Shown one piece after another: positions 2,539-39,717 of a DNA stretch of 64,000 nucleotides (the stretch's first letter is position 1; each line of letters opens with the position of its first letter). The notes beneath the pieces were generated by a model, which saw only the letters and a program-made list of their open reading frames with translations, was not told the origin of the DNA and made no database searches. The translations under genes and the position numbers were made by a program. The stretch is from Streptomyces albus subsp. albus (GTDB lineage: Bacteria; Actinomycetota; Actinomycetes; Streptomycetales; Streptomycetaceae): the NCBI RefSeq assembly GCF_000719865.1, contig NZ_JOID01000003.1:124001-188000 (forward strand), written 5' to 3'.

Positions 2539-3801
2539 TCAGAGGCGGTGCGCCGTGCCCGCCGGGATCGCGCCGCGGGTGTCCAGCAGCAACCGCGCCT
2601 TCACCGACAGCCCTTGCAGATCGTAGAAGCGGTGCGGCTGGAGCAGCACCGTCAGATCGGCGTCGGCCGCGGCCTCGTAGGGGAAGCCGGCCCGGGGCAC
2701 CGGGCGGCCCAGGACGCTCCACTGCGGCACATGCGGATCGTGGTAGCCGATCCGGGCCCCCAACTCCATGAGCCGCGCGGCGATTTCGCCGGCGGGCGAG
2801 CCGGTCCGGTCGCCGGTGTCCGGCTTGTACGTGACGCCGAGCAGCAGCACCCGGGCGCCGCGGGCGGACTTGCCGTGCTCGTTGAGGAGGATCGCGCAGC
2901 GCTGCACCACGTAGCGGGGCATCCGGTCGTTGACCTCCTTGGCGAGCTCCACCATCCGCAGCGGATAGCCGAGGCTGCGCCGCCGGTGCGCCAGGTAGGT
3001 GGGGTCGACGGGGACGCCGTGGCCGCCCGCCCCGGGCCCCGGCCGGAAGGCCTGGAAGCCGAACGGCTTGGTCTCGGCGCAGCGGATGACGTCCCACAGG
3101 TCGACGCCGATGTCGTGGCAGAAGACCGCCATCTCGTTGGCCAGCGCGATGTTGACGTGCCGGTAGTTGGTCTCCAGGACCTTGACGGTCTCGGCCTCGC
3201 GCGGGCCGCGGGCGCGGACCACGCGGTCGGTGATCCTGCCGTAGAAGGCGGCGGCCGCCTCGGTGCAGGCGGAGGTCAGACCGCCGACGACCTTGGGGGT
3301 GTTGGCGCAGCCGAAGGCGCGGTTGCCCGGGTCGAGGCGGCTGGGCGAGTAGGCGAGGTGGAAGTCGTGGCCGGCGCGCAGCCCGGACCCCTCCTCCAGC
3401 AGCGGGCGGAGGTATTCCTCCGTGGTGCCCGGGTACACGGTCGATTCCAGCAACACGGTGCTGCGGGGCCGCAGATGGGGGGCGAGGGTGCGGGCGGCCC
3501 GGCCGACGGCGCGCAGATCGAGCGCGGAGTCCTCGCCGAGCGGCGTGGGGGCGCAGATGACGGCGGTGCGGACCCGGCCGAGTCCGGCCGGGTCGGTGGT
3601 GGCGCGGAAGCCGGCGGAGAGCATCCGGCGCAGCCCGGCGGCGGTGAGCGAGCCGTCCGCGGGCGGCCGGCCGGCCATGAGGCCGTCGGCGCGGCCGCTG
3701 TCGGTGTCGTATCCGACGGTGGCGATGCCGGCCCCCGCGGCGGCCCGGGCGAGAGGGAGGCCCAGCGGGCCGAGACCGAGGACGGCGAGGTCTGCGGGCA
3801 T
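2539..3801 (-). CDS. Nucleotide-sugar dehydrogenase family protein with altered active site
   Basis: A 420-residue protein of the UDP-glucose/UDP-N-acetylmannosamine dehydrogenase family, NAD-dependent enzymes that oxidise the C6 of a UDP-sugar to a uronic acid for polysaccharide synthesis. The N-terminal Rossmann motif is VLGLGPLGLPLA. The central helix ETNYRHVNIALANEMA and the C-terminal UDP-binding half (GVTYKPDTGDRTGSP, YHDPHVP) are all present. At the active-site loop, where relatives have GGHC(I/L)PVDP, this protein reads GGHGVPVDP: the nucleophilic Cys codon is GGC (Gly). ATG 3801 is the likely start; AAGGAC lies upstream. It is divergent from glpD across about 200 bases. It may be inactive as a dehydrogenase, or act on a different chemistry. 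Confidence 0.88.
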   Translation of the reverse strand: MPADLAVLGLGPLGLPLARAAAGAGIATVGYDTDSGRADGLMAGRPPADGSLTAAGLRRMLSAGFRATTDPAGLGRVRTAVICAPTPLGEDSALDLRAVGRAARTLAPHLRPRSTVLLESTVYPGTTEEYLRPLLEEGSGLRAGHDFHLAYSPSRLDPGNRAFGCANTPKVVGGLTSACTEAAAAFYGRITDRVVRARGPREAETVKVLETNYRHVNIALANEMAVFCHDIGVDLWDVIRCAETKPFGFQAFRPGPGAGGHGVPVDPTYLAHRRRSLGYPLRMVELAKEVNDRMPRYVVQRCAILLNEHGKSARGARVLLLGVTYKPDTGDRTGSPAGEIAARLMELGARIGYHDPHVPQWSVLGRPVPRAGFPYEAAADADLTVLLQPHRFYDLQGLSVKARLLLDTRGAIPAGTAHRL

Positions 3802-3997
3802 GGCTGGGGGCCGTCCTTCCCGGGGCGCGTCTTGATGGATCTATGTAAGGCTAAACAGACATATTGCTGATAGGGAGTATTGCCCGCGTCGCCACGGTCC
3901 GGTGTTGCCGTGTGGGGACGCCCAGGGTTGCGTGCCCGCCGGGCGGTGAGAATCGCTGAGAGGGGAACGCGCGACCCGACCACGACGGGAGGCAGCG
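3802..3997. promoter_or_regulatory. Divergent promoter region between sugar dehydrogenase and glpD
   Basis: A 196-base divergent region. It contains the only AT-rich patch in the area (about 3836-3884, including CTATGTAAGGCTAAAC and GACATATTGCTGATAG), so promoters for one or both genes most likely lie here. No operator could be assigned with confidence. Confidence 0.5.
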
Positions 3998-5707
3998 GTG
4001 AGGACAGCGACACTGGGACCGGCCGAGCGTGCCGAGGCACTCGCCCGGATGGCCGAACACGAACTCGACATTCTGGTGGTGGGCGGGGGAGTGGTCGGCG
4101 CGGGCACCGCCCTGGACGCCGCCACCCGCGGACTGTCCACCGGCCTGGTCGAGGGCCGGGACTGGGCCTCCGGCACCTCCAGCCGGTCCAGCAAACTGAT
4201 CCACGGCGGGCTGCGCTATCTGGAGATGCTCGACTTCGCGCTCGTCCGGGAGGCGCTGAAGGAGCGCGGCCTGCTGCTGGAACGGCTCGCCCCGCACCTC
4301 GTCAAGCCGGTGCCGTTCCTCTACCCGCTGCGCCGCAAGGGCTTCGAACGCTGGTACGCCGGCGCGGGCGTGGCGATGTACGACGCCATGTCCGTCTCCT
4401 CCGGGCACGGCCGCGGCCTGCCGGTGCACCGCCACCTCAGCCGCGGCCGGGCCCTGCGGGTGGCCCCCGCGCTCAGGAAGGAGTCCCTGGTCGGGGCGTT
4501 GCAGTACTACGACGCGCAGGTGGACGACGCCCGCTTCGTGGCCACCCTGGTCCGCACCGCCGCCGCCTACGGCGCCGACGTCGCCAACCGCGCCCGCGTC
4601 ATCGGCTTCCTGCGCGAGGGCGAACGCGTCGTGGGCGCCCGGGTGCGGGACGTGGAGGCCGGCGGCGAGTACGAGATCCGGGCCCGTCAGGTCGTCAACG
4701 CCACCGGCGTCTGGACGGACGACACCCAGGGGCTCATCGCCGAGCGCGGGCAGTTCAAGGTCCGCGCCTCCAAGGGCATCCACCTGGTGGTGCCCAAGGA
4801 CCGCATCCACTCCACCACCGGGCTGATCCTGCGCACCGAGAAGAGCGTCCTCTTCGTCATCCCCTGGGGACGGCACTGGATCGTCGGCACCACGGACACC
4901 GACTGGGACCTGGACAAGGCCCACCCGGCCGCCTCCAGCGCCGACATCGACTACCTGCTGGAGCGCGTCAACTCGGTGCTGGCGGTGCCGCTCACACGGG
5001 ACGACGTGGAGGGCGTCTACGCCGGGCTGCGCCCGCTGCTGGCCGGCGAGTCCGACGCGACGAGCAAGCTGTCCCGGGAGCACACCGTCGCGCACCCGGT
5101 GCCGGGGCTGGTCGTCGTCGCCGGCGGAAAGTACACGACGTACCGGGTGATGGCCAAGGACGCGGTGGACGAGGCGGTGCACGGGCTGGACCAGCGCGTC
5201 GCGGAGTGCGTCACCGAGGACATCCGGCTGGTCGGCGCCGAGGGCTACCGGGCGATGTGGAACGCGCGCAACCGGCTCGCGGCGCGCACCGGCCTGCACG
5301 TCGTCCGCGTCGAACACCTGCTCAACCGGTACGGGGCGCTGGCGGAGGAGGTCTTCCGGCTCGTCGAGGAGCAGCCGTCGCTGGGCGAACCGCTGGCCTG
5401 TGCCGACGACTACCTGCGCGCTGAGATCGTCTACGGCGCCTCCCACGAGGGCGCCCGGCACCTGGACGACGTGCTCACCCGGCGCACCCGCATCTCCATC
5501 GAGACCTTCGACCGCGGCACGCGCAGCGCGCGGGAGTGCGCCGAGCTGATGGCCCCCGTGCTCGGCTGGGACGAGGGCCAGATCGAGAAGGAGGTCGAGC
5601 ACTACGAGAAGCGGGTGGAGGCCGAACGGGAGTCGCAGCGCCAGCCGGACGACCAGACGGCGGACGCGGCCCGGCTGGGAGCGCCCGACATCGTGCCGCT
5701 GAGCTGA
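3998..5707 (+). CDS. glpD: Aerobic glycerol-3-phosphate dehydrogenase
   Basis: A 569-residue FAD-dependent sn-glycerol-3-phosphate dehydrogenase of the GlpA/GlpD family, which oxidises glycerol-3-phosphate to dihydroxyacetone phosphate at the membrane and passes electrons to quinone. The FAD-binding motif VVGGGVVGAG is at about residues 28-37, followed by the family hallmark SRSSKLIHGGLRYLE and, further on, VIPWGRHWIVGTTDTDWD and the C-terminal DAO_C-type domain. The start is GTG 3998 with GGGAGG at 3987-3992. Length and motifs are normal. It stands alone, without glpF or glpK next to it; the neighbour upstream is divergent and the one downstream is convergent. Confidence 0.96.
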   Translation: MRTATLGPAERAEALARMAEHELDILVVGGGVVGAGTALDAATRGLSTGLVEGRDWASGTSSRSSKLIHGGLRYLEMLDFALVREALKERGLLLERLAPHLVKPVPFLYPLRRKGFERWYAGAGVAMYDAMSVSSGHGRGLPVHRHLSRGRALRVAPALRKESLVGALQYYDAQVDDARFVATLVRTAAAYGADVANRARVIGFLREGERVVGARVRDVEAGGEYEIRARQVVNATGVWTDDTQGLIAERGQFKVRASKGIHLVVPKDRIHSTTGLILRTEKSVLFVIPWGRHWIVGTTDTDWDLDKAHPAASSADIDYLLERVNSVLAVPLTRDDVEGVYAGLRPLLAGESDATSKLSREHTVAHPVPGLVVVAGGKYTTYRVMAKDAVDEAVHGLDQRVAECVTEDIRLVGAEGYRAMWNARNRLAARTGLHVVRVEHLLNRYGALAEEVFRLVEEQPSLGEPLACADDYLRAEIVYGASHEGARHLDDVLTRRTRISIETFDRGTRSARECAELMAPVLGWDEGQIEKEVEHYEKRVEAERESQRQPDDQTADAARLGAPDIVPLS

Positions 5708-7079: not shown

Positions 7080-7306
7080 CTCCGGCCTCCCTCCCGGCTC
7101 CGCTCCGTGTACGCGCCCATGATGACCTGCGGCGGCGCGAGGCGTCAGCGCGGGGCATGAGGCGCCGGACCCCGGGCATGGGCATGGCGGGGCATGGGGG
7201 AGAATGGAGACTCTGCCGGGGCGGACCACCGCGGTTGCGACAGAGGCGCGGTGAGCCACTGCCAACTCGGCGCCACCGCCTGGACATCGCAGCGCTGAGG
7301 GGACAC

Positions 7307-9475
7307 ATGTCGGAGCCGGAGCAGACACAGGGCGCCACCGGACGGATCCTGGCCGGCCGCTACCGGCTGGGCGAGGTGCTGGGGCGCGGCGGCATGGGCA
7401 CGGTCTGGCGCGCGGTCGACGAGACGCTGGGGCGTCAGGTCGCGGTCAAGGAACTGCGTTTCCCGTCGGCCGTCGACGAGGACGAGAAGCGCCGGCTGAT
7501 CACCCGGACCCTGCGCGAGGCGAAGGCCATCGCCCGGATCCGCGCCCAGGGCGGCATCACCGTCTACGACGTCGTCGACGAGGACGACCGCCCCTGGATC
7601 GTCATGGAGCTGATCGAGGGCTCCTCGCTCGCCGAGGTCATCCGCGACAAGGGCCGGCTCTCCCCGCGCCGGGCCGCCGAGGTCGGACTCGCCGTCCTCG
7701 ACGTGCTGCGCGCCGCGCACCGCGAGGGCATCCTGCACCGCGACGTGAAGCCGTCCAATGTGCTGATCTCCGGCGACGACAGCCGGGTGGTGCTCACCGA
7801 CTTCGGCATCGCGCAGGTCGAGGGCGACCCGTCGGTCACCTCGACCGGCATGCTCGTCGGCGCCCCCTCGTACATCTCGCCCGAGCGGGCCCGCGGCCAC
7901 AAGCCCGGCCCGCCCGCCGACCTGTGGTCGCTCGGCGGACTGCTGTACGCGTGCGTGGAGGGCGTGCCGCCGTACGACAAGGGCAACGGGCTCGCCACGC
8001 TGACGGCCGTGATGACGGAGCCGGTGCCCCCGCCGGAGCACGCGGGGCCGCTGGCGGACGTCATCTACGGCCTGCTGGAGAAGGACCCGGGCCGGCGCCT
8101 CGACGACGCGGGCGCGCGGGCGCTGCTCACCAAGGTGCTCGCGGAGACCGACGAATCCCAGCGGGTCGCGAAGACCAGGACGATGGCGGTGCCGGGGGAG
8201 TCGTCCGGCGCGAAGGCGGGGAAGGCCGGCGGCGCGGGCGCGGCCGGTGCCGCCGCGGCCGGTGCCTCCGCGACCGGGAGCGGGAGCGGGAAGGGGAGCG
8301 GGACCGGAAAGGGAGGCGGACGCAAGCCGGAGCCGTCGCCGGGCGGAGCGCCCGGGGACGGCGGGAAGGCCCGGACGGACTCCGGGGCGGGCTCCTCCGC
8401 GGGCTCCCCGGCGGACTCCGCGCCGGGGACCGACGGCCGCGGCACCAAGGAGGGGCGGGTGCGCGCCGCGCTGCGCTCGGTACGGGCCGCGGCGGCCGCG
8501 GGCGCCGCGGCCTCGGCGTCGTCCTCCCCGTCATCCTCCCCGGCGTCCGCGCCGGCGGAGCCGTCCTCCGGCGCACCGGCCGCCGCCTCCGGCCCGTCCT
8601 CCACCCCGGCCACCGCCGTCAACGCCTCGCCCTCGGCGGTGACGGGCACCGGCAGCCGGCGGCCCGTCACGGCCGCGCTCACGGACGTCGTGCCGAGACG
8701 AGTGCTGGCTCTCGTCGCGGGTGTGGTGGTCCTCGCCGTGCTCGGCGTGGTGCTGGCCTTCACCCTCGACGGCGACGACGGCGGATCCGCGGGCGGCGCC
8801 AAGGGCGACAAGGCGGCCGCCGGGGGTACCGGCGGCGGCAAGGACGACTCCGCGGACGCCGGCAAGGACGCCGGGCCGTCGGCCGAACCCTCGGGCGACG
8901 CGCATGACGGCCAGGGCGAGGGGAAGCCGGACGGCGAAGGCTCCGCCGGCAAGGACGGCGGACAGGACGGCGAGAGCGGCAAGGACGGCGGCAAGGATGC
9001 CGGAGACGCGGACGAGATCCCCGAGGGCTACGCGACCAGGACCGACAAGCGCTTCCGCTTCTCCATGGCCATGCCCGAGAACTGGAAGCTGACGCGGATA
9101 GCGGGCCAGAACTCCGGCGGCGTCTACAGCGAGTCCGGCGGAGTGCCGCGGATACAGGTCGACTTCAGCTCCCAGCCGAAGGACGACGCGGTCGCGGCCT
9201 GGCGCGCCCAGGAGCAGGCGTCGCGCGGATCGTTCCCCGGATACTCGTCGCGGGGCATCGACAGCGCGGAGTACCGGGACTATCCGACGGTCGCCGACTG
9301 GGAGTTCGAGTACACCCGGAGCGGTGAGCGGGTGCGGGTGCTCAACCGCGGCTTCAAGGTGGACGACGGCCATGCCTACTCGATCATGATCACGTGCGTG
9401 GCGGACGAGTGGGACGGCAAGGAGTGCACCACGCTGCGCGAGACGGCGTTCCGGACGTTCAAGCCCGTGGACTGA
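7307..9475 (+). CDS. Transmembrane Ser/Thr protein kinase (kinase 1 of 4)
   Basis: A 722-residue Hanks-type kinase. Residues about 15-280 form the kinase domain, with Gly loop GRGGMG, VAVKEL (catalytic Lys), HRDVKPSN near residue 144, DFGIAQ at residue 165 and SPERARG. A Ser/Ala/Gly/Pro-rich juxtamembrane linker (about 290-460) leads to a single membrane segment, VLALVAGVVVLAVLGVVLAF, near residues 466-486. Outside is a Gly/Asp/Lys-rich stalk and a 140-residue globular domain beginning DKRFRFSMAMPENW. No PASTA repeats are present. ATG 7307 follows GAGGGG by 5 bases; the longer frame from 7157 is not favoured. It heads a run of four co-directional kinase genes; S. coelicolor has, from memory, five (SCO4775-4779) at the equivalent place, linked to spore-wall synthesis. 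Confidence 0.95.
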   Translation: MSEPEQTQGATGRILAGRYRLGEVLGRGGMGTVWRAVDETLGRQVAVKELRFPSAVDEDEKRRLITRTLREAKAIARIRAQGGITVYDVVDEDDRPWIVMELIEGSSLAEVIRDKGRLSPRRAAEVGLAVLDVLRAAHREGILHRDVKPSNVLISGDDSRVVLTDFGIAQVEGDPSVTSTGMLVGAPSYISPERARGHKPGPPADLWSLGGLLYACVEGVPPYDKGNGLATLTAVMTEPVPPPEHAGPLADVIYGLLEKDPGRRLDDAGARALLTKVLAETDESQRVAKTRTMAVPGESSGAKAGKAGGAGAAGAAAAGASATGSGSGKGSGTGKGGGRKPEPSPGGAPGDGGKARTDSGAGSSAGSPADSAPGTDGRGTKEGRVRAALRSVRAAAAAGAAASASSSPSSSPASAPAEPSSGAPAAASGPSSTPATAVNASPSAVTGTGSRRPVTAALTDVVPRRVLALVAGVVVLAVLGVVLAFTLDGDDGGSAGGAKGDKAAAGGTGGGKDDSADAGKDAGPSAEPSGDAHDGQGEGKPDGEGSAGKDGGQDGESGKDGGKDAGDADEIPEGYATRTDKRFRFSMAMPENWKLTRIAGQNSGGVYSESGGVPRIQVDFSSQPKDDAVAAWRAQEQASRGSFPGYSSRGIDSAEYRDYPTVADWEFEYTRSGERVRVLNRGFKVDDGHAYSIMITCVADEWDGKECTTLRETAFRTFKPVD

Positions 9476-9783
9476 ACGTCCGGACGCGGCGGGGCCGGCG
9501 GGAACGGCGCGCGCGGGGCGGTGTGACGGCGGCGCGCGAGCGGTGCGCGAGCGGCGCGCGAGCGGTGCGCGAGCGGCGCGCGAGCGGTGCGCGCGCCCGC
9601 TCGGCCCGTGCCCCGGGCCCGCTCCGCGCCGGGTGCGGAAACCGGTTACGCCGTCCGCTCCGCACCGCCCCGCCGGGGCACGTATCGTGAAACGGTGCGG
9701 ACGCTACGCAGCCGCAACGGGTCGGTGGGCGGACAGGGTTGACTGTTCCGGGTGGATGCGGAACGCGCGCTTGGGGAGGCGTC
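9476..9783. repeat. Intergenic region with 11-bp tandem repeats
   Basis: Between kinase genes 1 and 2 lie five perfect tandem copies of the 11-mer YGCGCGAGCGG at 9533-9587, with the first base alternating C and T, so the strict unit is 22 bases. The rest of the interval is GC-rich. A more AT-containing patch, CGTATCGTGAAACGGTGCGGACGCTACG (about 9680-9707, written in part), may hold a promoter for the next gene. Confidence 0.75.
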
Positions 9784-12700
9784 GTGGAGGACTACGCGGG
9801 CCGGGTGCTGGCCGGCCGGTACCGCCTGCCCCGAACCGCCGACGAGACGTTCGACGCCGCCGAGACCCGCGCCTTCGACACCTACAGTGGCCAGGAAGTC
9901 CTGATCCGGCACATACCCCTGCCGGAGACCGTCGAGGCCGAGATCGTCGGCGACGACGGCCGTTACGGGCCCGGCGCGCCCGGCGGCCCGGCACGCGGTG
10001 CCGGTGACCCGGCGGTGCGGCGCGCCCTCGCGGCCGCGCGGGCCGCGGCGGCGGTCCCGGATCACCCGCGCTACGACCAGGTGTTCGACGTATTCGCCGA
10101 GGGCGGCGGTCTGTGGATCGTCAGCGAGCTGGTGGCCGGCCGGCCGCTGGCCGAGCTGCTCGCCGACCGCACGCTCTCCCCGCATCGCGCGGCGGAGGTC
10201 GCGGCCGACGTCCTGACCGCCCTGTCGGCGTTGCACGCCCAGGGCTGGATCCACCGCAACATCACCGCCCGCACGGTGCTCGTCTGCGAGGACGGCCGGG
10301 CCATGCTGACGGGACTGGCGTCCGGCGCGGCGGAGGAAGCGCTCTGCGGCTACGACCCGACCCCGCCCCCGGAGGGCGGGCCGGGCGGTCCGGGCGGTCC
10401 GGGCGGTCCGGGCCGAGACTTCGGCGGTCCGGGCGAGCCGGGGGCTCCGGGCGGAGACTTCGACAGTCCGGGTGGCCCGGGTGGCCCGGGTGGCCCGGGT
10501 GGCCCGGACGGTCCGGGCGGTTCGGGCGGGCCGGGTGGTTTCGGCGGGGAGGACCGGGGCGGCTTCGACGGCGGTCGGGGCGGCCGGAGCGATGGCTTCG
10601 GCGGTCCGGGCAGGCAGGGCAGTCCGGGCAGCCCGGGTGAGCCGGGCGGCTTCGGTGGTGGTCCGGGCGGCTTCGGGGGCGGCCCGGACGGTTCGGACGG
10701 TCCGGGTCCCGGCGGCGGTGAGCCGGGCACCGCACACGCACAGATCAACGGCCCTTATGACGACGGCGGTTCCGGCCGGTACCCCGGCGACGGCTCCAGT
10801 TCGCCGCACGGCCCCGGGGGCACGGCGGGCCCGGCCGGCCCGGCCGGCCCGGGGCACGAGGCCCCGGGGCGTGCCCCGCACACCGGTTCCGGCCCTTGGC
10901 AGGACCCCGATCCGCACCGCGCCTTCCGGCGCCCGCCCCCGTCCCCGTCCCCGGCCCCGTCCGGCCACGGACCGGAGCAGGAGCCCGGCCCGGCCGGCCG
11001 CGGGCAGAGGCAGAACCCCGGCCCGGACGCGCCCGCGGACCGGCCCGCCCCTGACGGCAGGCAGCCCCGATCCCGTGCGATCGCCGCCTACTCGGCGGGT
11101 GCCCGGGCCGCGGCCCGGGCCCAGATCCGGCCCGCCGACCAGCCCCGGGTCCGTCCGCTGTCCGCGCTGCCGGGCCCGGCCGGAGACCGCACCGGCGAGC
11201 CCGGGCTGCCCGGACCGTCCGAGGACCCCGCCGCCCGGCCCGGCGGGCCCCGTACCGGGGAGGGGAACGGCACGGCACCGGGTCTTCCGGGGCCCGCGCT
11301 TCCGGGCCGCCTCCTGGGGCCCGCCGTGCCCGGCCCCGCCCTCGGCCCGGCTCTGCCCGGCGGCACCGCATCCGGTTCTTCCGCGCCGGGCGGCACCGTG
11401 CCCGGTCCCGCGGTGCCGGGTTTTTCCGCGCCGGGCCCCGCAGCCCTCGGTCCTTCCGTGCCGGGCGGTGCCGCGCCCGGTCCTGCGGTGCCGGGCTCCG
11501 CCGTATCCGGTCCCGCCGTGCCGGGTGGTCTTGTGCCCGGCTCCACCGCGCCCGGAGCCGACGACTCCGGTTCCGCTGAACCCCGTTGGCCGGGTGCGGA
11601 ATCCGCCCCGGGGCCCGCCGGCCCCTCCGCGCCGCGCTGGGGCGGACTGCCCGAGGCCCCGGTGCCGGCGGAGTCGAGCTGGCACGGCAGTACGGGGCGG
11701 CCCGGCCGACCGGGCATGCCCCCCGGCTCTCCCGGCTCTCCCGGCGGCGGGAAGCAGGGCGGGGGCGGACGCCCGGACCCGGCCGGACGCCCCTCCGGTG
11801 ACGGCGGCGAGCCGGACCGCGAGGCCGGGGGCACGGACCGCCCGGGCCGGACGCCGGCCTCCCTGCCGCCCGCCGACCGGCCCATCGGCGGCCCCGAGCT
11901 TCCCCCAGGAACAGGCCGTCGCGCGGAACAACCCCGGTATCCGGGGCGGTCCGGGGAACTGGAGCCGTCCCGGGAGTCCGGACGCCCCGGAGGGCCCCAA
12001 CAGCCGTACTCCGGCGAGCAGTCGGGCCGGTCCGGTGCGGTGGAGACGCCCTGGCGGCCGGACGACGAGCCCGCCCGGCGCACGGGGGCCGCAAGCGGCA
12101 CCGACGCCGACCGGCGGTCCGGCGCCACGGAGCCGGATGACCGCTCCGGCGGCCACGGCCCCGGCCGCTCGCCCGGTGGGTACGGCTCACCGGGACCGTA
12201 CGACCGGGAAGCCGGGCCTCCGCAGGGCCCGCCTGCGTACGGCGCCGCCGGCCGGCCGCCGCATCACACCGGTGCCGTCGCACAGGTCCGGCGTCCCGGG
12301 GCTGTCGAGCCGGTCCGCCGGGAGAGCGGCGAACGGCCCGGCGGTACGGCACCGGCCGGTGGCCCCGCGGGCGAGCACCGGCCCGCCGTGCCCGGGCAGC
12401 AGTCTGCCGGCCGCACCCCGTCCGCCGGCCGCACCCCGTCCGCCGGCCGTGACGGCGCCCCGCCCCGTGCCGACCGGTACGCCGCCCCGTCCACCGGAGG
12501 CTGGGACGAGACGCCCGGGGACGGCCCGGCGGCCGGCCGGTACCAGCGCGGCCCCGGCACCCCGCTGGCCGCCGAGCGGGCCCGCCAGGCCCGCATCCTC
12601 GTCGTCGGCGCCGTCACCGAGCGCTGGGCGCCCGAACAGGCCGGTCCCGTGCACGCCAACTGGCAGCTCGCACCGCCCATCGGCCCCGCAACCGACCTGT

Positions 12701-13848
12701 GGGCCGTCGGCGCGCTGCTCTTCCGCGCGGTGCAGGGACACGCGCCCTACCCCGAGGAGAACGCGGCCGAGCTGGTGCAGCTCGTCTGCACCGAGGCGCC
12801 CGCGTTCGCCGAGGAGTGCGGCGCGCTGCGTCCCGTCGTCGAGTCGCTGCTGCGCCAGGACCCCACCGAGCGCCCGGAGTTCGAGGAGCTGCGCGGCTGG
12901 CTGCGGTCGCTCATCCGTACGGCCCCGGAGCCGGATGTCGGCGCGCGCACGGTCACCGTCCCCTCCCTGGGCCCCGGTGCGGACGCCGACCCGCGGCGGC
13001 TGCCGGTGATACGCCGCCGGGGCGAACTGGTGCGCCGGCGCCGCGGCGGCGGGGCCGTGGTGCACGGCCGGCACAAGCGGGCGAAGGAGCACCGGCACGG
13101 TCCGCGCCGTCTGGGACGGCTGCTGCTTCTGCTGATCCTGCTGGCGCTGGCCGGTGCCGTCGCCTACGCGATGCTCTTCATGCCCCGCGCCGGGGACACG
13201 GCGGGCGGCTCCACCGGCCGCGCCGGCACGGCCGGAGCCCCGAGCGCGGCCCCCTCCGCCGACGCCTCCCCCGGTGAGGGGGAGCGGGACACCGCGGGCG
13301 ACGGTGACGGCGAGCAGGGCGGAAACGGAAGCGACAAGGAGAACGAGAAGGAGAGCGAGAAAGAGCAGGACGGCTCGGGCGACAGTGCCGGTCTCGCCAA
13401 GGGCTTCGAACTCCGCACCGACCCGGAGGGCTTCCGGATCGCCGTGCACGAGAGCTGGGAGCGGCGTGGTGGCAATGCCCTCGGCCAGGTCCGCTACGGA
13501 AAAGGCGACTTCGAGCTGACCGTCGTTCCGGGGCGGGACACCGTGGAGGAGTTCGGCAGCGACCCGATGGCCTATCAGCAGGATGCCGAACGGGAGTTGG
13601 CCCCGTTCCGGGAGTCGCAGTGGTCCTCGGCCTCCGGGCTGCGGCGGATCGAGGTCGGGCAGACCTCCATGGCCGAGGGGGTCTTCAACTGGCGGGACGA
13701 CGCCGACCGGCAGATTCACACCCGCAATCTGGCGATGATCATCGACGGCCGCTACCACCTCGTCCTGGTCTCCGGACCGATCGCGGACAAACAGGAAGTG
13801 GCCCGCTTCTTCGAGCAGGCGACCGCCACCTACCGCCCCACGGACTGA
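9784..13848 (+). CDS. Transmembrane pseudokinase with a giant Gly/Pro-rich insertion
   Basis: A 1354-residue protein with a kinase fold split in two. Residues 1-185 match the N-lobe and catalytic-loop region, but the catalytic residues are gone: no GxGxxG loop, Arg42 (LIRHI) where VAIK has Lys, HRN instead of HRD at 157-159, and LTG at 175-177 where DFG should be. Residues about 190-930 are low-complexity: (GGP)n collagen-like blocks, PGPAVPG-type repeats, SAGRTP repeats. The C-lobe resumes at APEQAGP and TDLWAVGALL (about residue 970) and ends near 1060. A membrane segment (LGRLLLLLILLALAGAVAYAM, about 1107-1130) and a 150-residue external domain related to that of kinase 1 follow. The start is GTG 9784, with GGGGAGG at 9773-9779. 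Probably a regulatory, non-catalytic partner of the flanking kinases. Confidence 0.9.
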   Translation: MEDYAGRVLAGRYRLPRTADETFDAAETRAFDTYSGQEVLIRHIPLPETVEAEIVGDDGRYGPGAPGGPARGAGDPAVRRALAAARAAAAVPDHPRYDQVFDVFAEGGGLWIVSELVAGRPLAELLADRTLSPHRAAEVAADVLTALSALHAQGWIHRNITARTVLVCEDGRAMLTGLASGAAEEALCGYDPTPPPEGGPGGPGGPGGPGRDFGGPGEPGAPGGDFDSPGGPGGPGGPGGPDGPGGSGGPGGFGGEDRGGFDGGRGGRSDGFGGPGRQGSPGSPGEPGGFGGGPGGFGGGPDGSDGPGPGGGEPGTAHAQINGPYDDGGSGRYPGDGSSSPHGPGGTAGPAGPAGPGHEAPGRAPHTGSGPWQDPDPHRAFRRPPPSPSPAPSGHGPEQEPGPAGRGQRQNPGPDAPADRPAPDGRQPRSRAIAAYSAGARAAARAQIRPADQPRVRPLSALPGPAGDRTGEPGLPGPSEDPAARPGGPRTGEGNGTAPGLPGPALPGRLLGPAVPGPALGPALPGGTASGSSAPGGTVPGPAVPGFSAPGPAALGPSVPGGAAPGPAVPGSAVSGPAVPGGLVPGSTAPGADDSGSAEPRWPGAESAPGPAGPSAPRWGGLPEAPVPAESSWHGSTGRPGRPGMPPGSPGSPGGGKQGGGGRPDPAGRPSGDGGEPDREAGGTDRPGRTPASLPPADRPIGGPELPPGTGRRAEQPRYPGRSGELEPSRESGRPGGPQQPYSGEQSGRSGAVETPWRPDDEPARRTGAASGTDADRRSGATEPDDRSGGHGPGRSPGGYGSPGPYDREAGPPQGPPAYGAAGRPPHHTGAVAQVRRPGAVEPVRRESGERPGGTAPAGGPAGEHRPAVPGQQSAGRTPSAGRTPSAGRDGAPPRADRYAAPSTGGWDETPGDGPAAGRYQRGPGTPLAAERARQARILVVGAVTERWAPEQAGPVHANWQLAPPIGPATDLWAVGALLFRAVQGHAPYPEENAAELVQLVCTEAPAFAEECGALRPVVESLLRQDPTERPEFEELRGWLRSLIRTAPEPDVGARTVTVPSLGPGADADPRRLPVIRRRGELVRRRRGGGAVVHGRHKRAKEHRHGPRRLGRLLLLLILLALAGAVAYAMLFMPRAGDTAGGSTGRAGTAGAPSAAPSADASPGEGERDTAGDGDGEQGGNGSDKENEKESEKEQDGSGDSAGLAKGFELRTDPEGFRIAVHESWERRGGNALGQVRYGKGDFELTVVPGRDTVEEFGSDPMAYQQDAERELAPFRESQWSSASGLRRIEVGQTSMAEGVFNWRDDADRQIHTRNLAMIIDGRYHLVLVSGPIADKQEVARFFEQATATYRPTD

Positions 13849-13996: not shown

Positions 13997-15721
13997 ATGG
14001 GCGTCATGGGGAGCTTCGGGGCGGAGAGCCCACTCATCGCCGGCCGCTACCGCCTGGACTTCCGGCTCGGCCGGGGCGGCATGGGGACCGTGTGGCGCGC
14101 CACCGATGAACTGCTCAGGCGGCACGTCGCCGTGAAGGAGGTCCACGTCGGCGAGGGGCTCCCGGAGAGCGACGCGCGGTCGCAGCGGGAGCGCACGCTG
14201 CGCGAGGCCCGTACGCTCGCGCAACTGCGGCATCCCAGTGTGGTCGTCGTGCACGACGTGGTGGAGGAGGACGAACGGCCATGGATCGTCATGGAGTTGA
14301 TTGTCGGTCAGTCACTCGCCGACCGGATCGCCGCCGAGGGCCCCGTACCGCCGCGCGAGGCCGCCCGGATCGGGATCGCCCTGCTGGGCGCGCTCCGCGA
14401 GGCGCACCGGCACGGTGTGCTGCACCGGGACCTCAAACCCGCCAACGTCGTGCTGGAGGCCGCGGCGGGGCGGGTGGTGCTGACGGACTTCGGCGTCGCG
14501 CGGATGGACGGCGGCACGACGATCACCGAGAGCGGCACCTTCGTCGGCTCCCCGGAGTACACGGCCCCCGAGCGGATGGCGGGCACCGGGGCGGGCCCGG
14601 AGTCCGACCTGTGGTCGCTGGGCGTGCTGTTGTGCGAGGCGCTCAGCGGCCGCACCCCGTTCCACCAGGACTCGCTGGGCGGAGTGCTGCACGCCGTCAT
14701 GGCGGGCGACATCCGGCCGCCGGAGGCCGCCGGCCCGCTGCTCCCCGCCGTCCTCGGGCTGCTGGAGCGCGATCCGGCGCGCCGGATGGTCGCGGCCGAG
14801 GCCGAGGCGCTGCTGACGGAGTATCTGCGCACCGGCCGGATGCCGGAGGTGCCGCGGTTCGCACGGGCGGAGGGGGGACGACGTGCCGGGGCGGGCGGCG
14901 GTGCCGGTGCGGAAGCCGCCGCGCGGGCCGGCTACGCGGGGCCGCCGCCGGACGGCGTCCGCCCGGGGGACGGCCACCCCGGCGGGCCGCCGCTCGGTCC
15001 GCTGCTGCCACCGCGCGGGAGCAGGCACCGGGGGCGCACGGCGCTGGCGGCGGCCCTGATGGTCGCGGCGGCCGGCGGCACGGGCGTGGCCGCGTTGGCG
15101 ATGCTGGTGAACGGCGAGACCCCGCTGGACGAACGGCCGACCTCGACCTCGCGCCCGGACGGGACGGCGGACGGCGACGGCGACGGCGACGGTGAAGGGG
15201 ACGGCGGCGGCAGCGGCGGGCCCGCGCGCCCGACGGCGACGCCCAGCGCGTCCCGCACCTCCCCGTCGCCCGGGCCGTCCGGCAGCGGGCCGTCGGCTTC
15301 CGGACCGTCCGCTTCCGGCCGCCCGACGGCGGGCCCGTCCGGGTTCGGACGGAGACCGGGACGCGGTCCCTCGGCCTCCGCTTCCGCCTCCCCCTCCGCC
15401 GCGCCCTCCGCGCCGAGCCGCCTGTCCGGGGTATCCGGGGTGTCCGGGCTGTCCGAGGCGTCCCGGGCGCCAGGGGCGTCCGACGGGACCGGGCCGGTCC
15501 CGGTCGGCGGCCGGCTCGCGGCAGAGGCCGCGTCCCGGTCGGCTCCGGCCTCTGAGCGGTCCCTTCCGGAGACGTCCGTCCCGCCGCTCGCCGGCCGGCT
15601 CCCGGCCGGGGCCGGTCCCGGCCCGGCGGCGGTGGACGGCGACGGGGCGCCGGAGCGCCTGCGGGCGGACGAGGAGGCGGCGGCGGGCCGCGAACGCGAA
15701 CACCCGCGCGCACCCTGGTAG
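13997..15721 (+). CDS. Transmembrane Ser/Thr protein kinase (kinase 3 of 4)
   Basis: A 574-residue Hanks-type kinase with an intact catalytic core: GRGGMG, VAVKEV, HRDLKPAN near residue 143, DFGVARMDGG, APERMAG and DLWSLGVLL. The kinase domain covers about residues 12-275. A Gly/Ala-rich linker precedes one membrane segment (TALAAALMVAAAGGTGVAALAM, about 350-372). The external part is about 200 residues of Ser/Pro/Gly-rich, low-complexity sequence (PSASGPSASGRPTAGPSG, SGVSGVSGLSEAS) with no recognised sensor domain, unlike kinases 1, 2 and 4. Start ATG 13997 follows TGGGG by 4 bases; ATG 14006 is possible. It is separated from the pseudokinase gene by 148 bases. Confidence 0.93.
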   Translation: MGVMGSFGAESPLIAGRYRLDFRLGRGGMGTVWRATDELLRRHVAVKEVHVGEGLPESDARSQRERTLREARTLAQLRHPSVVVVHDVVEEDERPWIVMELIVGQSLADRIAAEGPVPPREAARIGIALLGALREAHRHGVLHRDLKPANVVLEAAAGRVVLTDFGVARMDGGTTITESGTFVGSPEYTAPERMAGTGAGPESDLWSLGVLLCEALSGRTPFHQDSLGGVLHAVMAGDIRPPEAAGPLLPAVLGLLERDPARRMVAAEAEALLTEYLRTGRMPEVPRFARAEGGRRAGAGGGAGAEAAARAGYAGPPPDGVRPGDGHPGGPPLGPLLPPRGSRHRGRTALAAALMVAAAGGTGVAALAMLVNGETPLDERPTSTSRPDGTADGDGDGDGEGDGGGSGGPARPTATPSASRTSPSPGPSGSGPSASGPSASGRPTAGPSGFGRRPGRGPSASASASPSAAPSAPSRLSGVSGVSGLSEASRAPGASDGTGPVPVGGRLAAEAASRSAPASERSLPETSVPPLAGRLPAGAGPGPAAVDGDGAPERLRADEEAAAGREREHPRAPW

Positions 15722-15936
15722 CCGGGCAGGCCGTGCCGGGTGCCGGAGGCCGCGGGCCGGCTCCCGTGTGGCGGCTGCCGCGCCGCCGCGCGCCGGGTGC
15801 CCGCGGGCCGCGGCCGCGCGGGCCGTTCCTCCGGGCCGTGCCGGTTCGCCCGTCCCGGCGTCCGCTGTGTCACGGTGCTGCACCGCCCCGGTGGCCCGAC
15901 TGGAACCGGGCGCCGGAGGGCGGCCATGATGGGGAC

Positions 15937-17820
15937 ATGAAGAACGACGGGGGACGGGCCGACGAGCCCACCAGCTATCTGATCCCGCCTCCGGGCGCGC
16001 CCGCCGCCGGTCCCGCCGGTGCCCCCGCGCCCGGGCAGGACGGGGCGCCCGGGACGCCGCGCCCCGGCGCCGCGCCTCAGCAGGAGCCCGGGCAGGAGCC
16101 CGCGCAGGAGCCCGCGCAGGCATCCGCGCCCCACCAGGCGTCCGCGCAGGAACCCGCAGCCCGGCAGGCGCCCGCGCCCCGCCATCCACTCGCGCCGCAC
16201 CCGGCGCCGGGGGCCCCGGCCCCCGCGTCCGGGGCCCCGCACCCGGAACCCGGAACCCCGGCGCCCGTGCCCACCGAGGTGGTCGCCACCCCGCCGCCCC
16301 GGGCTGCGCACGGAGCCGGTGCGGGCACCGCAGGCCCCGCGCCCGGCCGGACGATCGGCGGCCGCTACCGCCTCCTGTCCCGGCTCGGCCACGGCGGCAT
16401 GGGCACCGTCTGGCGGGCCCGGGACGAGGTGGTCGACCGTGATGTGGCGGTCAAGGAGCCCCGGGTTCCCGACCAGTTGAGCGAGCAGGAGCGGCAGACC
16501 GTCTACCAGCGGATGCGGCGCGAGGCCCGCTCCGCGGCCGCCATCGACCACCCGTCCGTCGTCACCGTGCACGACGTCGTGGTGGAGGACGGCCGCCCCT
16601 GGATCGTCATGGAGCTGGTCCGCGGCCAGTCGCTCGGGGACCGGCTCGGCGAGGGCACCCTGGACCCGCGCGAGGCGGCCCGGATCGGCCTGGCCGTGCT
16701 CGGCGCGCTGACCGCCGCGCACGAGGCGGGGGTGCTGCACCGGGACGTCAAGCCGGACAACGTCCTGCTGGGGAGGCACGACCGGGTGGTGCTCACCGAC
16801 TTCGGCATCGCGCAGGTCGAGGGGGAGCAGCGGCTCACCGAGACCGGCGCGTTCCTCGGCTCCCCGGAGTACATCGCGCCCGAACGGGTGCTCGGGCAGC
16901 TCCCCGGGCCGGAGTCCGACCTCTGGTCGCTTGGCGTGCTGCTGTACGCGGCGGTGGAGGGCATGTCCCCGTACCGGCGTTCCAACACCCCCGCGACGCT
17001 GCAGGCCGTGCTCTCCGCCGAGCCGCCCGCGCCGGCGCGCGGGGCGGGCGCGCTCGGCCACCTCGTCATGCAGTTGCTGCGGAAGGACCCGGCGGCGCGC
17101 CCCGCGCCGGCCGAGATCCGGCAGACCCTGGAGAGCGTCGCCCGCCCGCCGCAGCCGCCAGCCCTGCCGCAGACCCGCGCCATGACGACGGGCGGCCCCG
17201 GCGGACCGCGCGGCCTGCTCCGCACCACCCGCGGCCGGGCCGGCCTGGGCGGCGGACTGCTGGCGGCGGTGCTCGCCCTGGTGCTCGTCATCGCCAATCC
17301 CTTCGCCGCCGACGGGCCTCCGGAGGACTGGCGGGTCCGGGAGGAGGGCGAGATCGTCAAGGCCTCCCTGTTCCTGCCGCCCGACTACGAGCGCACCGAC
17401 TCCGAGGAGGGGTACGTCACCTTCGCCGACCCCAGCGGCGTCTACACCGTCGAGCTGTGGCGGGACCAGGACACCGGGGAGCCGGGCGACACCCCGAACG
17501 CGGACTCGGCGGAGAAGGCGGCCGAGGAGCTGGTGACGTACTACGGGTCCGGGGCCGAGAACTCCGTGCAGGAAGCCCGCAGCACCACGCGCCAGGCCTC
17601 CCAGCAGGAGCGGAAGGCGGTGCAGGTCTTCACCACCTTCCGGGACTACGGCGCGCGGGAGGACGACATCACCCGGCACTTCCGGGAGCACGTCTACGTC
17701 AACGCGGACAAGGTCGTCTGGCGGCTCCGGGTGCGGATGCCCGCCGAGGGGCACGCGCGCCCGGAGGGCGAGAAGCTCTTCGACGAGATCGTGCGCCACC
17801 TGGAGATCCAGGAACTCTGA
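15937..17820 (+). CDS. Transmembrane Ser/Thr protein kinase (kinase 4 of 4)
   Basis: A 627-residue Hanks-type kinase. Residues 1-140 are an Ala/Pro/Gln-rich extension placed before the kinase domain, which is unusual; the QEPGQEPAQEPAQ block is repetitive. The kinase domain (about 141-405) has GHGGMG, VAVKEP, HRDVKPDN, DFGIAQVEG, APERVLG and DLWSLGVLL. A membrane segment (GLGGGLLAAVLALVLVIA, about 430-450) is followed by a 170-residue external domain (VKASLFLPPDYERTDS...) whose size and position parallel the tails of kinase 1 and the pseudokinase. ATG 15937 gives the natural N-terminus; the ribosome site is weak (GGGGA just upstream). Likely the last gene of the kinase run, since a terminator hairpin follows. 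Confidence 0.94.
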   Translation: MKNDGGRADEPTSYLIPPPGAPAAGPAGAPAPGQDGAPGTPRPGAAPQQEPGQEPAQEPAQASAPHQASAQEPAARQAPAPRHPLAPHPAPGAPAPASGAPHPEPGTPAPVPTEVVATPPPRAAHGAGAGTAGPAPGRTIGGRYRLLSRLGHGGMGTVWRARDEVVDRDVAVKEPRVPDQLSEQERQTVYQRMRREARSAAAIDHPSVVTVHDVVVEDGRPWIVMELVRGQSLGDRLGEGTLDPREAARIGLAVLGALTAAHEAGVLHRDVKPDNVLLGRHDRVVLTDFGIAQVEGEQRLTETGAFLGSPEYIAPERVLGQLPGPESDLWSLGVLLYAAVEGMSPYRRSNTPATLQAVLSAEPPAPARGAGALGHLVMQLLRKDPAARPAPAEIRQTLESVARPPQPPALPQTRAMTTGGPGGPRGLLRTTRGRAGLGGGLLAAVLALVLVIANPFAADGPPEDWRVREEGEIVKASLFLPPDYERTDSEEGYVTFADPSGVYTVELWRDQDTGEPGDTPNADSAEKAAEELVTYYGSGAENSVQEARSTTRQASQQERKAVQVFTTFRDYGAREDDITRHFREHVYVNADKVVWRLRVRMPAEGHARPEGEKLFDEIVRHLEIQEL

Positions 17821-18081: not shown

Positions 18082-19755
18082 ATGACGGAGACGCAGGCCA
18101 CCCCGCAGGACACCGCAGCACCCGCCACGACCGGAGGCACCCCGGTCCCGGCCGCCCCGGCGGACGTGACCGGCGGCAACCCGGTCTTCACCGCCCCGGC
18201 GGGCACCCGCACCGCCGCCGAGGTGGTGACCCCCGAACTCGTCGCCCGGCTCACCGACGGCCTCACCGGCTCCGGCCGGACCGCCAACCACACGCCGTTC
18301 ACCGGCGAGCGGCTGGCCGAGCTGCCCGAGTCCACCCCCGAGGACGTGGCCTCCGCGTTCGAGCGGGCCCGCGAGGCCCAGCGGGCCTGGGCCGCCGTCC
18401 CCGCGCGGAAGCGGGCCGCAGTGCTGCTCCGCTTCCACGACCTGGTGCTGGCCCGGCAGGACGAGGTTCTCGACCTCATCCAGCTGGAGACCGGCAAGGC
18501 CCGGATGCACGCCCACGAGGAGGTGCAGGCCGTGGCCATGGCCGCCCGCCACTACGGCCGCCGCGGCCCGGCGTACCTGCGGCCCAAGCGGCACACCGGC
18601 GCCGTCCCCGTCCTGACCAAGGTCACCGAGCTGCGCCAGCCGCGCGGCGTCGTCGGCCAGATCGCCCCGTGGAACTACCCGCTGGAGCTCTCCGTCGGCG
18701 ACGCGCTGCCCGCCTTCGCCGCCGGCAACGCCGTCGTGATGAAGCCGGACACCGAGACCGCGCTCACCGCGCTGTGGGCCCGGCGGCAGCTGATCGAGGC
18801 CGGACTGCCCGAGCAGCTGTGGCAGGTCGTCATCGGCGAGGGCCCCGTGGTCGGCCCGGCCGTCGTCGAGCACGCCGACTACGTCTCCTTCACCGGCTCC
18901 ACCCGCACCGGCCGCACCGTCGCCCAGAGCGCGGCCGCCCGGCTCGTCGGCTGCTCGCTCGAACTGGGCGGCAAGAACGCCATGCTGGTGCTCCGCGACG
19001 CCGATCTGGACAAGGCCGCCGAGGGAGCCGTCCGCGCCTGCTTCTCCTCCAGCGGCCAGCTCTGCATCTCCATCGAGCGCCTCTTCGTCCACGAGTCGGT
19101 CGCCGACGACTTCCTGGAGCGCTTCGCCGCCCGCACGAAAGCCATGAAGCTCGGCACCGCCCTCGCCTACGGCGCCGACATGGGCTCCCTCGTCTCCGAC
19201 CGTCAGCTGGAGACGGTCAGCCGCCACGTGGACGACGCCGTGGCACGCGGCGCCAAGGTCGTCGCCGGCGGCCGCGCCCGCCCCGACGTCGGCCCGCTGT
19301 TCTACGAGCCGACCATCCTGGACGGCGTCGCCGACCCGATGGCCGTCTGCTCCGAGGAGACCTTCGGCCCCGTCGTCTCCGTCTACCGCTTCACCGACGA
19401 GGACGAGGCGATCGAGCGCGCCAACGCCACCACCTACGGCCTCAACTCCAGCGTCTGGACCAAGGACGGCCGCCGCGGCCGCGCCGTCGCCGCCCGGCTG
19501 CGCACCGGCACCGTCAACGTCAACGAGGGCTACGCCGCCGGCTACGGCAGCGTCCAGGCGCCGATGGGCGGCATGGGCGACTCCGGGCTCGGCCGCCGGC
19601 ACGGCTCCGAGGGCATCCTCAAGTACACCGAGGCGCAGACCGTCGCCCACCAGCGGCTGATGCCGCTCGCCCCTTCCTTCGGACTGACGGACGAGAAGTA
19701 CGCGGCGCTGATGTCGGTGAGCCTGCGCGCCATGAAGGCGTTCCGGCTCCGCTGA
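18082..19755 (+). CDS. Succinate-semialdehyde dehydrogenase (NADP+), GabD2-like
   Basis: A 557-residue NAD(P)-dependent aldehyde dehydrogenase most like actinobacterial succinate-semialdehyde dehydrogenases, which oxidise succinic semialdehyde to succinate in the GABA shunt. Catalytic Glu294 lies in LELGGKN and nucleophile Cys328 in SSGQLCIS; the cofactor-binding GQIAPWNYP and the C-terminal EETFGPVVSVYRF and GLNSSVWTKD motifs are intact. The first 45 residues are an Ala/Thr/Pro-rich extension. Start ATG 18082. The GMC oxidoreductase gene follows 221 bases later. No gabT is nearby, so the GABA link is by family only; other semialdehydes are possible. Confidence 0.9.
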   Translation: MTETQATPQDTAAPATTGGTPVPAAPADVTGGNPVFTAPAGTRTAAEVVTPELVARLTDGLTGSGRTANHTPFTGERLAELPESTPEDVASAFERAREAQRAWAAVPARKRAAVLLRFHDLVLARQDEVLDLIQLETGKARMHAHEEVQAVAMAARHYGRRGPAYLRPKRHTGAVPVLTKVTELRQPRGVVGQIAPWNYPLELSVGDALPAFAAGNAVVMKPDTETALTALWARRQLIEAGLPEQLWQVVIGEGPVVGPAVVEHADYVSFTGSTRTGRTVAQSAAARLVGCSLELGGKNAMLVLRDADLDKAAEGAVRACFSSSGQLCISIERLFVHESVADDFLERFAARTKAMKLGTALAYGADMGSLVSDRQLETVSRHVDDAVARGAKVVAGGRARPDVGPLFYEPTILDGVADPMAVCSEETFGPVVSVYRFTDEDEAIERANATTYGLNSSVWTKDGRRGRAVAARLRTGTVNVNEGYAAGYGSVQAPMGGMGDSGLGRRHGSEGILKYTEAQTVAHQRLMPLAPSFGLTDEKYAALMSVSLRAMKAFRLR

Positions 19756-39230: not shown

Positions 39231-39248
39231 GATCGGCGCTCCTTCCGT

Positions 39249-39412
39249 GGACCGCCTACCGGGTTAGCTGTCGGGTTCGGGCGTATCGGAAGGCTGCCCT
39301 ACGGTCGGTGCGAGACGCCGTGCGCGCCGCGCGGAAGACCGATTCACCCCGGTGTCGCGTGTGGGTCCCCGGCTCCGGACTCCCTGGGGAAAGGGCCGGA
39401 TTCGGCGGTGGC
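39249..39412 (-). promoter_or_regulatory. c-di-AMP riboswitch (ydaO/yuaA motif)
   Basis: The minus-strand leader of the NlpC/P60 gene carries the diagnostic blocks of the ydaO motif in the right order: GGGGACCCA (39370-39362), GGTGAATC (39348-39341) and, near the 3' end, GCCCGAACCCGACAGCTAACCC (39282-39261, shown in parts: GCCCGAACCCGACAGC then TAACCC). A P1-like pairing ACCGCC/GGCGGT joins 39409-39404 with 39256-39251. The aptamer ends just before the ribosome site, so high c-di-AMP should lower expression of the hydrolase. Boundaries are approximate. Confidence 0.92.
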
Positions 39413-39717
39413 TGCCCGTGCCGGCGCGGTCGCCGGCGGGGAGTGCGGGCCGCCTGAACGAGCACCGTAGCCATATGTGCGGCTCCTGTGAAGGCCGTTG
39501 TGCGATATGCCCGAAACCATTCCGTTATATTTTTCCGGCAGAGCGGAATTGTGCCCTCCGGGTGGCTGACCGGGCACGGTAAGTAGCGCATAAAGGCTGG
39601 GCGCGGCCGGGGAGTTCGGGTTCGGACTCCCAGGCCCACCGGTGTCCGGACGCGGCGGGGACCGCCGGCGGGAACCCCGTGCCGCATGTCGGCGGGTCCG
39701 CCTAGACTCGGGGGGCG
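39413..39717. other. Divergent promoter region of NlpC/P60 and pcrA
   Basis: Holds an AT-rich core (about 39466-39545, including TATATTTTTCC and ATATGTGCGG), where the riboswitch transcript probably starts on the minus strand. TAGACT at 39703-39708, 9 bases before the pcrA ATG, is a candidate -10 for pcrA. Confidence 0.5.

What the first reader, a model, noticed from the sequence alone, without database searches (positions are those of the whole stretch)
9784..13848. Pseudokinase with about 740 residues of Gly/Pro-rich sequence inserted in the activation segment
The kinase fold is recognisable on both sides (catalytic-loop position HRN 157-159; C-lobe TDLWAVGALL near 970), but Lys, catalytic Asp and DFG are all replaced, and a disordered block sits where the activation loop and APE motif should meet. 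An intact reading frame this long with strong codon bias argues against a dead gene. It may be a scaffold that bridges the three active kinases flanking it, with a very long tether full of potential phosphosites.
Basis: partly seen in the sequence, partly recalled or inferred. Interest (0 to 1): 0.8.

Follow-up and report, generated by a model that had tools for sequence, protein, structure and literature searches.

The report
Pseudokinase paired with spore-wall kinase
This gene encodes a kinase-like, predicted membrane-anchored protein that has lost the residues needed to phosphorylate and likely steers the active kinase encoded next door, a pair that would help control spore-wall building in Streptomyces; it fits an already described pseudokinase family, but its huge floppy loop keeps one conserved spot that may dock a partner.

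Summary
Window 9784-13848 (+) is one intact gene (1354 aa): kinase halves at residues 1-190 and 933-1046 around a 742-residue Gly/Pro/Ala-rich insert. The Gly-rich loop, beta3 Lys (Arg42), alphaC Glu, catalytic Asp (HRN) and DFG (two residues deleted) are gone. The gene is not dead: its kinase halves are as constrained as the neighbouring active kinase. Its anatomy matches the published ActPs2 pseudokinases (review 2025; loop function 'unclear'), so the kind is known. New here: by gene order it is the SCO4776-type gene of the spore-wall kinase cluster. It directly follows the PkaH-type kinase in 96 of 97 genus genomes holding both (the other is split at a contig end), while other kinases come and go. 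Other genera have insert-less orthologues; one models as a complete kinase fold (pLDDT 82). Loops run from 23 to 757 residues; a roughly 19-residue island occurs in 238 of 241 parsed proteins with loops of 144 or more and in none of 53 with loops up to 100. Most likely it is a non-catalytic regulator or docking platform for PkaH; that step is inferred.

The parts
9784..13848 (+). Pseudokinase gene (PSK), 1354 aa, GTG start
   Evidence: the relatives aligned begin at about the same residue
9784..10353 (+). N-lobe, catalytic-loop and beta8 part of the kinase fold (residues 1-190); Gly-rich loop and alphaC Glu absent
   Evidence: homologous region in the model of an insert-less orthologue
9907..9909 (+). 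Arg42 in place of the beta3 Lys (VLIR)
   Evidence: R in 208 of 208 proteins where the site was parsed (30 of 238 not parsed there)
10252..10260 (+). HRN (residues 157-159) in place of HRD
   Evidence: N in 238 of 238
10309..10317 (+). TGL (176-178) where DFG is expected; two residues deleted relative to the neighbouring kinases
10354..12579 (+). Activation-segment insert, residues 191-932, low-complexity with short tandem repeats
   Evidence: longest loop of 238 parsed close relatives
11068..11124 (+). Conserved island in the insert (RSRAIAAYSAGARAAARAQ, residues 429-447)
12616..12639 (+). TERWAPEQ (945-952), APE motif kept
12580..12921 (+). C-lobe of the kinase fold (residues 933-1046)
13117..13182 (+). 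Predicted transmembrane helix (about 1112-1133), Arg-rich on the kinase side, so kinase and insert are predicted cytosolic
   Evidence: by eye; helix at the same place in the model of orthologue P0059
13402..13845 (+). Predicted extracytoplasmic domain (1207-1354), PsbP/Mog1/LpqN-like fold
   Evidence: on orthologue P0059; no Pfam family
7157..9475 (+). K1, active-type Ser/Thr kinase (HRDVKPSN, DFG), PkaH-type by gene order; ORF as listed, true start probably downstream
13997..15721 (+). Active-type Ser/Thr kinase (HRDLKPAN, DFG)
15733..17820 (+). Active-type Ser/Thr kinase (HRDVKPDN, DFG); ORF as listed
18082..19755 (+). Succinic semialdehyde dehydrogenase, the gene that follows the kinase cluster
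   Evidence: NF006916, above its cut-off

Best explanation
The gene encodes a predicted membrane-anchored pseudokinase of the ActPs2 type that has lost the catalytic residues, and it likely works as a non-catalytic regulator or docking platform for the active PkaH-type kinase encoded directly upstream of it. Shown by sequence: catalytic residues lost, residues that hold the fold kept, both halves under purifying selection, near-invariant neighbourhood with one kinase. Inferred: the pseudokinase domain pairs with PkaH, probably back to back as the MviN pseudokinase and some canonical bacterial kinases do; its activation segment, freed from catalysis, has become a cytosolic arm whose conserved island (AIAAYxAGxRAAA) binds a third partner; the ectodomain, probably the same fold as that of PkaH, adds a sensing or pairing surface. 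Inferred from literature: the pair acts on the Streptomyces spore-wall synthesising complex, because the S. coelicolor cluster SCO4775-4779 controls spore-wall integrity and a second copy of SCO4776, taken here from gene order as this gene's orthologue, disturbs it, which dosage of a non-catalytic partner would explain better than extra phosphorylation. The bulk length of the insert is probably not itself important.
Against: No direct evidence of binding between pseudokinase and PkaH; adjacency may reflect common descent of a cluster. PMC4416010 section 5: by RT-PCR pkaH RNA was not detected in any growth phase while SCO4776 was expressed throughout (its discussion says microarrays disagree for pkaH), and each gene is transcribed separately. 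Its two-hybrid screen with PkaI names PkaA and PkaD, not SCO4776 (text of section 11; the supplementary table was not seen). One genome (G121, 5.4 Mb) has the PkaH-type kinase without the pseudokinase. Identity with SCO4776 rests on gene order; no S. coelicolor sequence was held (nearest: S. anthocyanicus P0356). Ectodomain kinship of the pair is weak (hhalign probability 44%, E 2.4e-4). Insert-less orthologues lack ectodomain and island, so neither is needed for the basic pairing.
Confidence: 0.5

Rival explanations
1. The pseudokinase domain matters, but the activation-segment insert is functionally idle low-complexity sequence that grew by repeat slippage because a dead kinase tolerates it.
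For: Loop length 23 to 757 between orthologues; 0 of 53 parsed proteins with loops up to 100 carry the island; insert dN/dS 0.47 against 0.08-0.13 in the halves; tandem repeats; in protein P0074 and locus L081 the insert looks frame-shifted and the gene goes on.
Against: A ~19-residue island is present in 238 of 241 parsed proteins with loops of 144 or more, inside sequence that is otherwise poorly conserved (49% identity over the alignable codons). Of 87 occurrences in the 2.06 Mb held (overlapping loci included), 86 lie in pseudokinase frames; the other lies out of frame inside the same gene of L081.
Confidence: 0.35
2. One reading: a scaffold that bridges all the active kinases of the cluster through its long tether.
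For: Cluster neighbourhood; five-fold deletion is worse than deletion of pkaI alone (PMC4416010, abstract and section 7).
Against: 18 of 65 loci with 9 kb or more of downstream DNA held show no further active kinase there, yet keep the gene (in 17 of the 18 the dehydrogenase is not there either); insert-less orthologues exist beside the same kinase.
Confidence: 0.15
3. It still binds nucleotide, or catalyses something else, with Arg42 and another Arg in place of the lost residues, as an AlphaFold3 model in the 2025 review suggested for ActPs2.
For: Arg at the beta3 position in 208 of 208 parsed; the review reports a modelled ATP complex (PMC12599244 section 7).
Against: Gly-rich loop, alphaC Glu, catalytic-loop Lys/Asn and DFG Asp are all missing; insert-less orthologues go further, with HGN and, in L146, HLA.
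Confidence: 0.15
4. A decaying gene or an assembly or frameshift artefact.
For: Extreme length (longest loop of 238) and repeats in a draft assembly of 126 contigs.
Against: Same architecture in the 238 parsed relatives, purifying selection, SCO4776 protein reported in a proteome (PMC9739823). The exact repeat number here could still be off.
Confidence: 0.02

Closest known systems
ActPs2 bacterial pseudokinases (O'Boyle et al. 2025 review, PMC12599244)
   Same: beta3 Lys to Arg, HRD to HRN, deletion in DFG, insert between beta3 and alphaC, long disordered activation-loop extension, C-terminal transmembrane segment, actinobacterial
   Different: Loop here is 742 residues against about 250 described; the section read (7) gives no gene neighbourhood, gene name or function (the word Streptomyces does not occur in the main text), calls the insertions disordered, and mentions no conserved island or ectodomain
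S. coelicolor SCO4776, in the spore-wall kinase cluster SCO4775-4779 (PMC4416010)
   Same: Same position: second gene, behind pkaH, before the other kinases; in the named loci read here the cluster is usually followed by the dehydrogenase
   Different: Treated in that paper as a kinase; sequence not compared here, and the window's cluster has four kinase-like genes, not five
MviN pseudokinase of M. tuberculosis (ActPs3)
   Same: Pseudokinase domain of a transmembrane cell-wall protein, phosphorylated by PknB, reported to lack ATP and Mg binding
   Different: ActPs3 has a deletion, not an extension, in the activation loop, and MviN is itself essential for peptidoglycan synthesis
PknA/PknB-type active Ser/Thr kinases
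   Different: Catalytic and metal-binding residues lost; ectodomain of another kind (PASTA domains of PknB recalled)

Membership tests
ActPs2 pseudokinase | beta3 Lys replaced by Arg | tested here: met
   Arg42; 208 of 208 parsed relatives, 30 of 238 not parsed at this site
ActPs2 pseudokinase | HRD Asp replaced by Asn | tested here: met
   HRN 157-159; Asn in 238 of 238
ActPs2 pseudokinase | Deletion in the DFG motif | tested here: met
   LTGLA against LTDFGIA of the neighbouring kinases; the alignment program places the gap differently, so the exact residues are my reading
ActPs2 pseudokinase | About 32-residue insert between beta3 and alphaC | tested here: met
   An insert is there, but shorter: about 19 extra residues in the window protein in the alignment; length varies among relatives
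ActPs2 pseudokinase | Long disordered extension of the activation loop | tested here: met
   742 residues here; pLDDT under 50 over nearly all of the 129-residue insert of P0059
ActPs2 pseudokinase | Transmembrane segment C-terminal to the kinase | tested here: met
   Residues about 1112-1133, predicted
ActPs2 pseudokinase | Match to the authors' family profile or reference protein | not testable with these tools
   Profile and reference accession not held; filed by motif anatomy
Active PknB-like Ser/Thr kinase | Catalytic Asp, beta3 Lys and DFG Asp present | tested here: not met
[quoted passage not shown]
   Extension instead (definition)
PsbP/Mog1/LpqN-like domain | Same fold for the C-terminal ectodomain | tested here: met
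PsbP/Mog1/LpqN-like domain | Sequence match to a named family | tested here: inconclusive
   No Pfam hit up to E 1

The most novel reading that the evidence does not exclude
The PkaH-type kinase and this pseudokinase form a conserved kinase-pseudokinase receptor pair of the Streptomyces family, comparable to a HER2/HER3-type pair (comparison recalled), in which the pseudokinase's activation segment has been rebuilt into a free docking arm: once the loop is long its length drifts freely while one short conserved island captures the partner that the pair regulates during spore-wall assembly. Then the 'overbalanced kinase activity' phenotype of a second SCO4776 copy was the dosage effect of a dead kinase.
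Probability: 0.27. Interest if true: 0.75.

Novelty: new member of a known kind. Interest (0 to 1): 0.48.

Why it matters
ActPs2 is a bacterial pseudokinase family whose function the 2025 review leaves open. Tying it, by gene order, to SCO4776, to one near-invariant partner kinase and to a phenotype already published in a tractable organism makes its function directly testable. It also questions a published reading: one of the five 'kinases' whose second copy was taken to overbalance phosphorylation is very probably not a kinase. A conserved island inside a freely drifting activation segment would show how a dead enzyme's catalytic loop can be reused as an interaction arm.

Tried and rejected

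Supplementary files of the papers were not seen.
Full report
What is there. The frame 9784-13848 (+) is open over 1354 residues. Pfam recognises a kinase in residues 94-176 only (47.2 bits); the C half is found separately in the same frame by a six-frame search of the genome (E 3e-4, below the family's cut-off). Between residue 190 (EEALCGY) and 933 (ARQARI) lie 742 residues, 26% Gly, 20.5% Pro, 11.6% Ala, built partly of short tandem repeats. Aligned with active kinases of the same window, the protein lacks the Gly-rich loop, the beta3 Lys (Arg42), the alphaC Glu, the catalytic Asp, the catalytic-loop Lys and Asn and two residues of DFG, but keeps APE (TERWAPEQ, 945-952), the alphaF Asp-Leu-Trp and the C-lobe Arg (the names of the kinase landmarks are recalled).

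A living gene. Two protein searches listed 240 relatives, those (the best 120 of 2512 and the best 120 of 2691). With the window protein that makes 241; 238 could be parsed: Asn at the catalytic position in 238 of 238, Arg at beta3 in 208 of 208 where that site was parsed, loop (EAL to TERW) 144-757 residues, median 331, the window's being the longest. In 105 pairs among 15 loci that I chose of the 80 fetched, median dN/dS was 0.132 for the N half, 0.077 for the C half, 0.471 for the alignable insert codons and 0.153 for the upstream kinase domain.

One constant partner. Among 101 genomes of the genus, 100 have the upstream kinase K1. A strong pseudokinase match (E 6e-55 or better) is present in 96, with a fragment in one more, G081, at a contig end. 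In the 97 with both, 96 have the pair on one strand with starts 1.4-3.0 kb apart; in the other, G014, K1 lies at a contig end. Three genomes show K1 alone, each running to a contig end (G028, G050, G073). One genome in 740 contigs, G008, showed neither. In named loci, 68 of 68 with upstream DNA held have K1 directly upstream (67 of the 68 show its HRDVKPSN); 80 loci were fetched and 12 dropped for lack of a match, of a recognised frame or of upstream DNA. All 20 regions chosen from other genera have it too. Of 8 family genomes without the pseudokinase, 7 have only kinases 53-56% identical to K1 at best, whereas the 8 positives tested have 64-84%. The eighth, G121, keeps K1 and has no pseudokinase in the DNA behind it: a genuine exception. 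Outside the family, 0 of 15 genomes of the order have a match at E 1e-22. By contrast, active kinases downstream of the pair number 0, 1, 2, 3 and 4 in 18, 13, 9, 16 and 9 of 65 loci with 9 kb or more held (frames may merge, so these are approximate, and in 17 of the 18 loci with none the dehydrogenase is not there either).

The conserved island. Inside the insert, many of these proteins share a stretch around AIAAYxAGARAAA (residues 429-447 here). A strict form was found in 98 of 115 parsed proteins, a loose form in 118 of 121 and in 235 of 238. Over all 361 proteins held, 305 could be parsed: the island is in 238 of 241 with loops of 144 or more, 6 of 11 with loops of 101-143, 0 of 8 with 44-100 and 0 of 45 with 43 or fewer. 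So it came with the long loop, and several proteins named Streptomyces with short loops lack it. Its distance from the ends of the insert varies: 33-281 residues on one side, 45-491 on the other. In 2.06 Mb of held sequence (overlapping loci included) read in six frames, 86 of 87 occurrences lie in pseudokinase frames; the other, in L081, lies in another frame inside that gene. It is not notably amphipathic, and the model of P0059 gives no structure there. It is the best candidate for a function of the insert, and nothing more is shown.

What is known. The review PMC12599244 (sections 7 and 8 read whole, outline, abstract and passages elsewhere) describes ActPs2: beta3 Arg (R42 in its example too), HRN, DFG deletion, an insert before alphaC and a 250-residue disordered activation-loop extension in about 90% of members, and a transmembrane segment, with function unclear. 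The window protein meets each feature that I could test, so the kind is known. S. coelicolor has a cluster of five kinase genes, SCO4775 (pkaH), SCO4776, SCO4777 (pkaD), SCO4778 (pkaI) and SCO4779 (pkaJ) (PMC4416010; sections 5, 7, 11 and 12 whole, abstract and passages elsewhere). In the named loci with five kinases the pseudokinase is second, so by order it is SCO4776, the one without a pka name. The nearest sequence that I could name is S. anthocyanicus P0356 (978 aa; that this species is close to S. coelicolor is recalled), with HRN, a long loop, the island and TERWAPEQ. [quoted passage not shown] SCO4776 RNA was found throughout the life cycle, pkaH RNA in no phase by RT-PCR, although the discussion notes that microarrays show pkaH highly expressed; that speaks against a simple pair unless the RT-PCR missed it. 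A proteome study detected four of the five proteins, all but PkaI (PMC9739823, section 15). A third paper (PMC9600765, passages only) does not mention SCO4776. I found no paper that links ActPs2 with SCO4776: 'SCO4776' and its neighbours gave 2 papers, 'ActPs2' gave 4, 1 of them on kinases, a further family search 1, and cluster names 25, of which 10 were listed and the same 2 were on Streptomyces; 'pseudokinase' with 'Streptomyces' gave 82, of which 20 titles were seen. The library holds open-licence papers only.

Mechanism. Shown: lost catalysis residues, kept fold, selection, near-invariant neighbour. Inferred: non-catalytic partner of PkaH, by analogy with the back-to-back pairing of the MviN pseudokinase and some canonical bacterial kinases; the loop as an arm with one docking spot; action on the spore-wall complex. 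The strongest rival is that the insert is idle filler and only the pseudokinase domain matters; island-only removal would decide.

Noticed in passing
L081 (Streptomyces philanthi), about 9968-12598: The pseudokinase frame is open through the insert, but the island sits in another frame there, as if two compensating frameshifts lie in the insert.
   Followed up: partly
Named loci: Of 70 loci whose catalytic loop was parsed, 69 read HRN and one HCN.
   Followed up: no
L146 (G114), PSK frame 3217-4542: An even more degenerate relative: HLA instead of HRN and almost no activation segment, still directly behind K1.
   Followed up: no
L172 (G121): A 5.4 Mb genome of the family keeps the PkaH-type kinase but shows no pseudokinase behind it; an unrelated frame follows instead.
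   Followed up: yes
window 9509-9593: Tandem array of 11/22-bp units (GCGCGCGAGCGGTGCGCGAGCG) in the gap between K1 and the pseudokinase gene.
   Followed up: no
window 39238-39417 (-): c-di-AMP riboswitch (ydaO/yuaA leader), 61.6 bits, just upstream of a minus-strand frame at 38052-39230.
   Followed up: no
P0074: This relative has an insert of altered, Arg-rich composition that looks frame-shifted and then returns to frame.
   Followed up: no
G023:C1:7100346-7100900: One genus genome has a second, 50% identical copy of the N half elsewhere on the chromosome.
   Followed up: no
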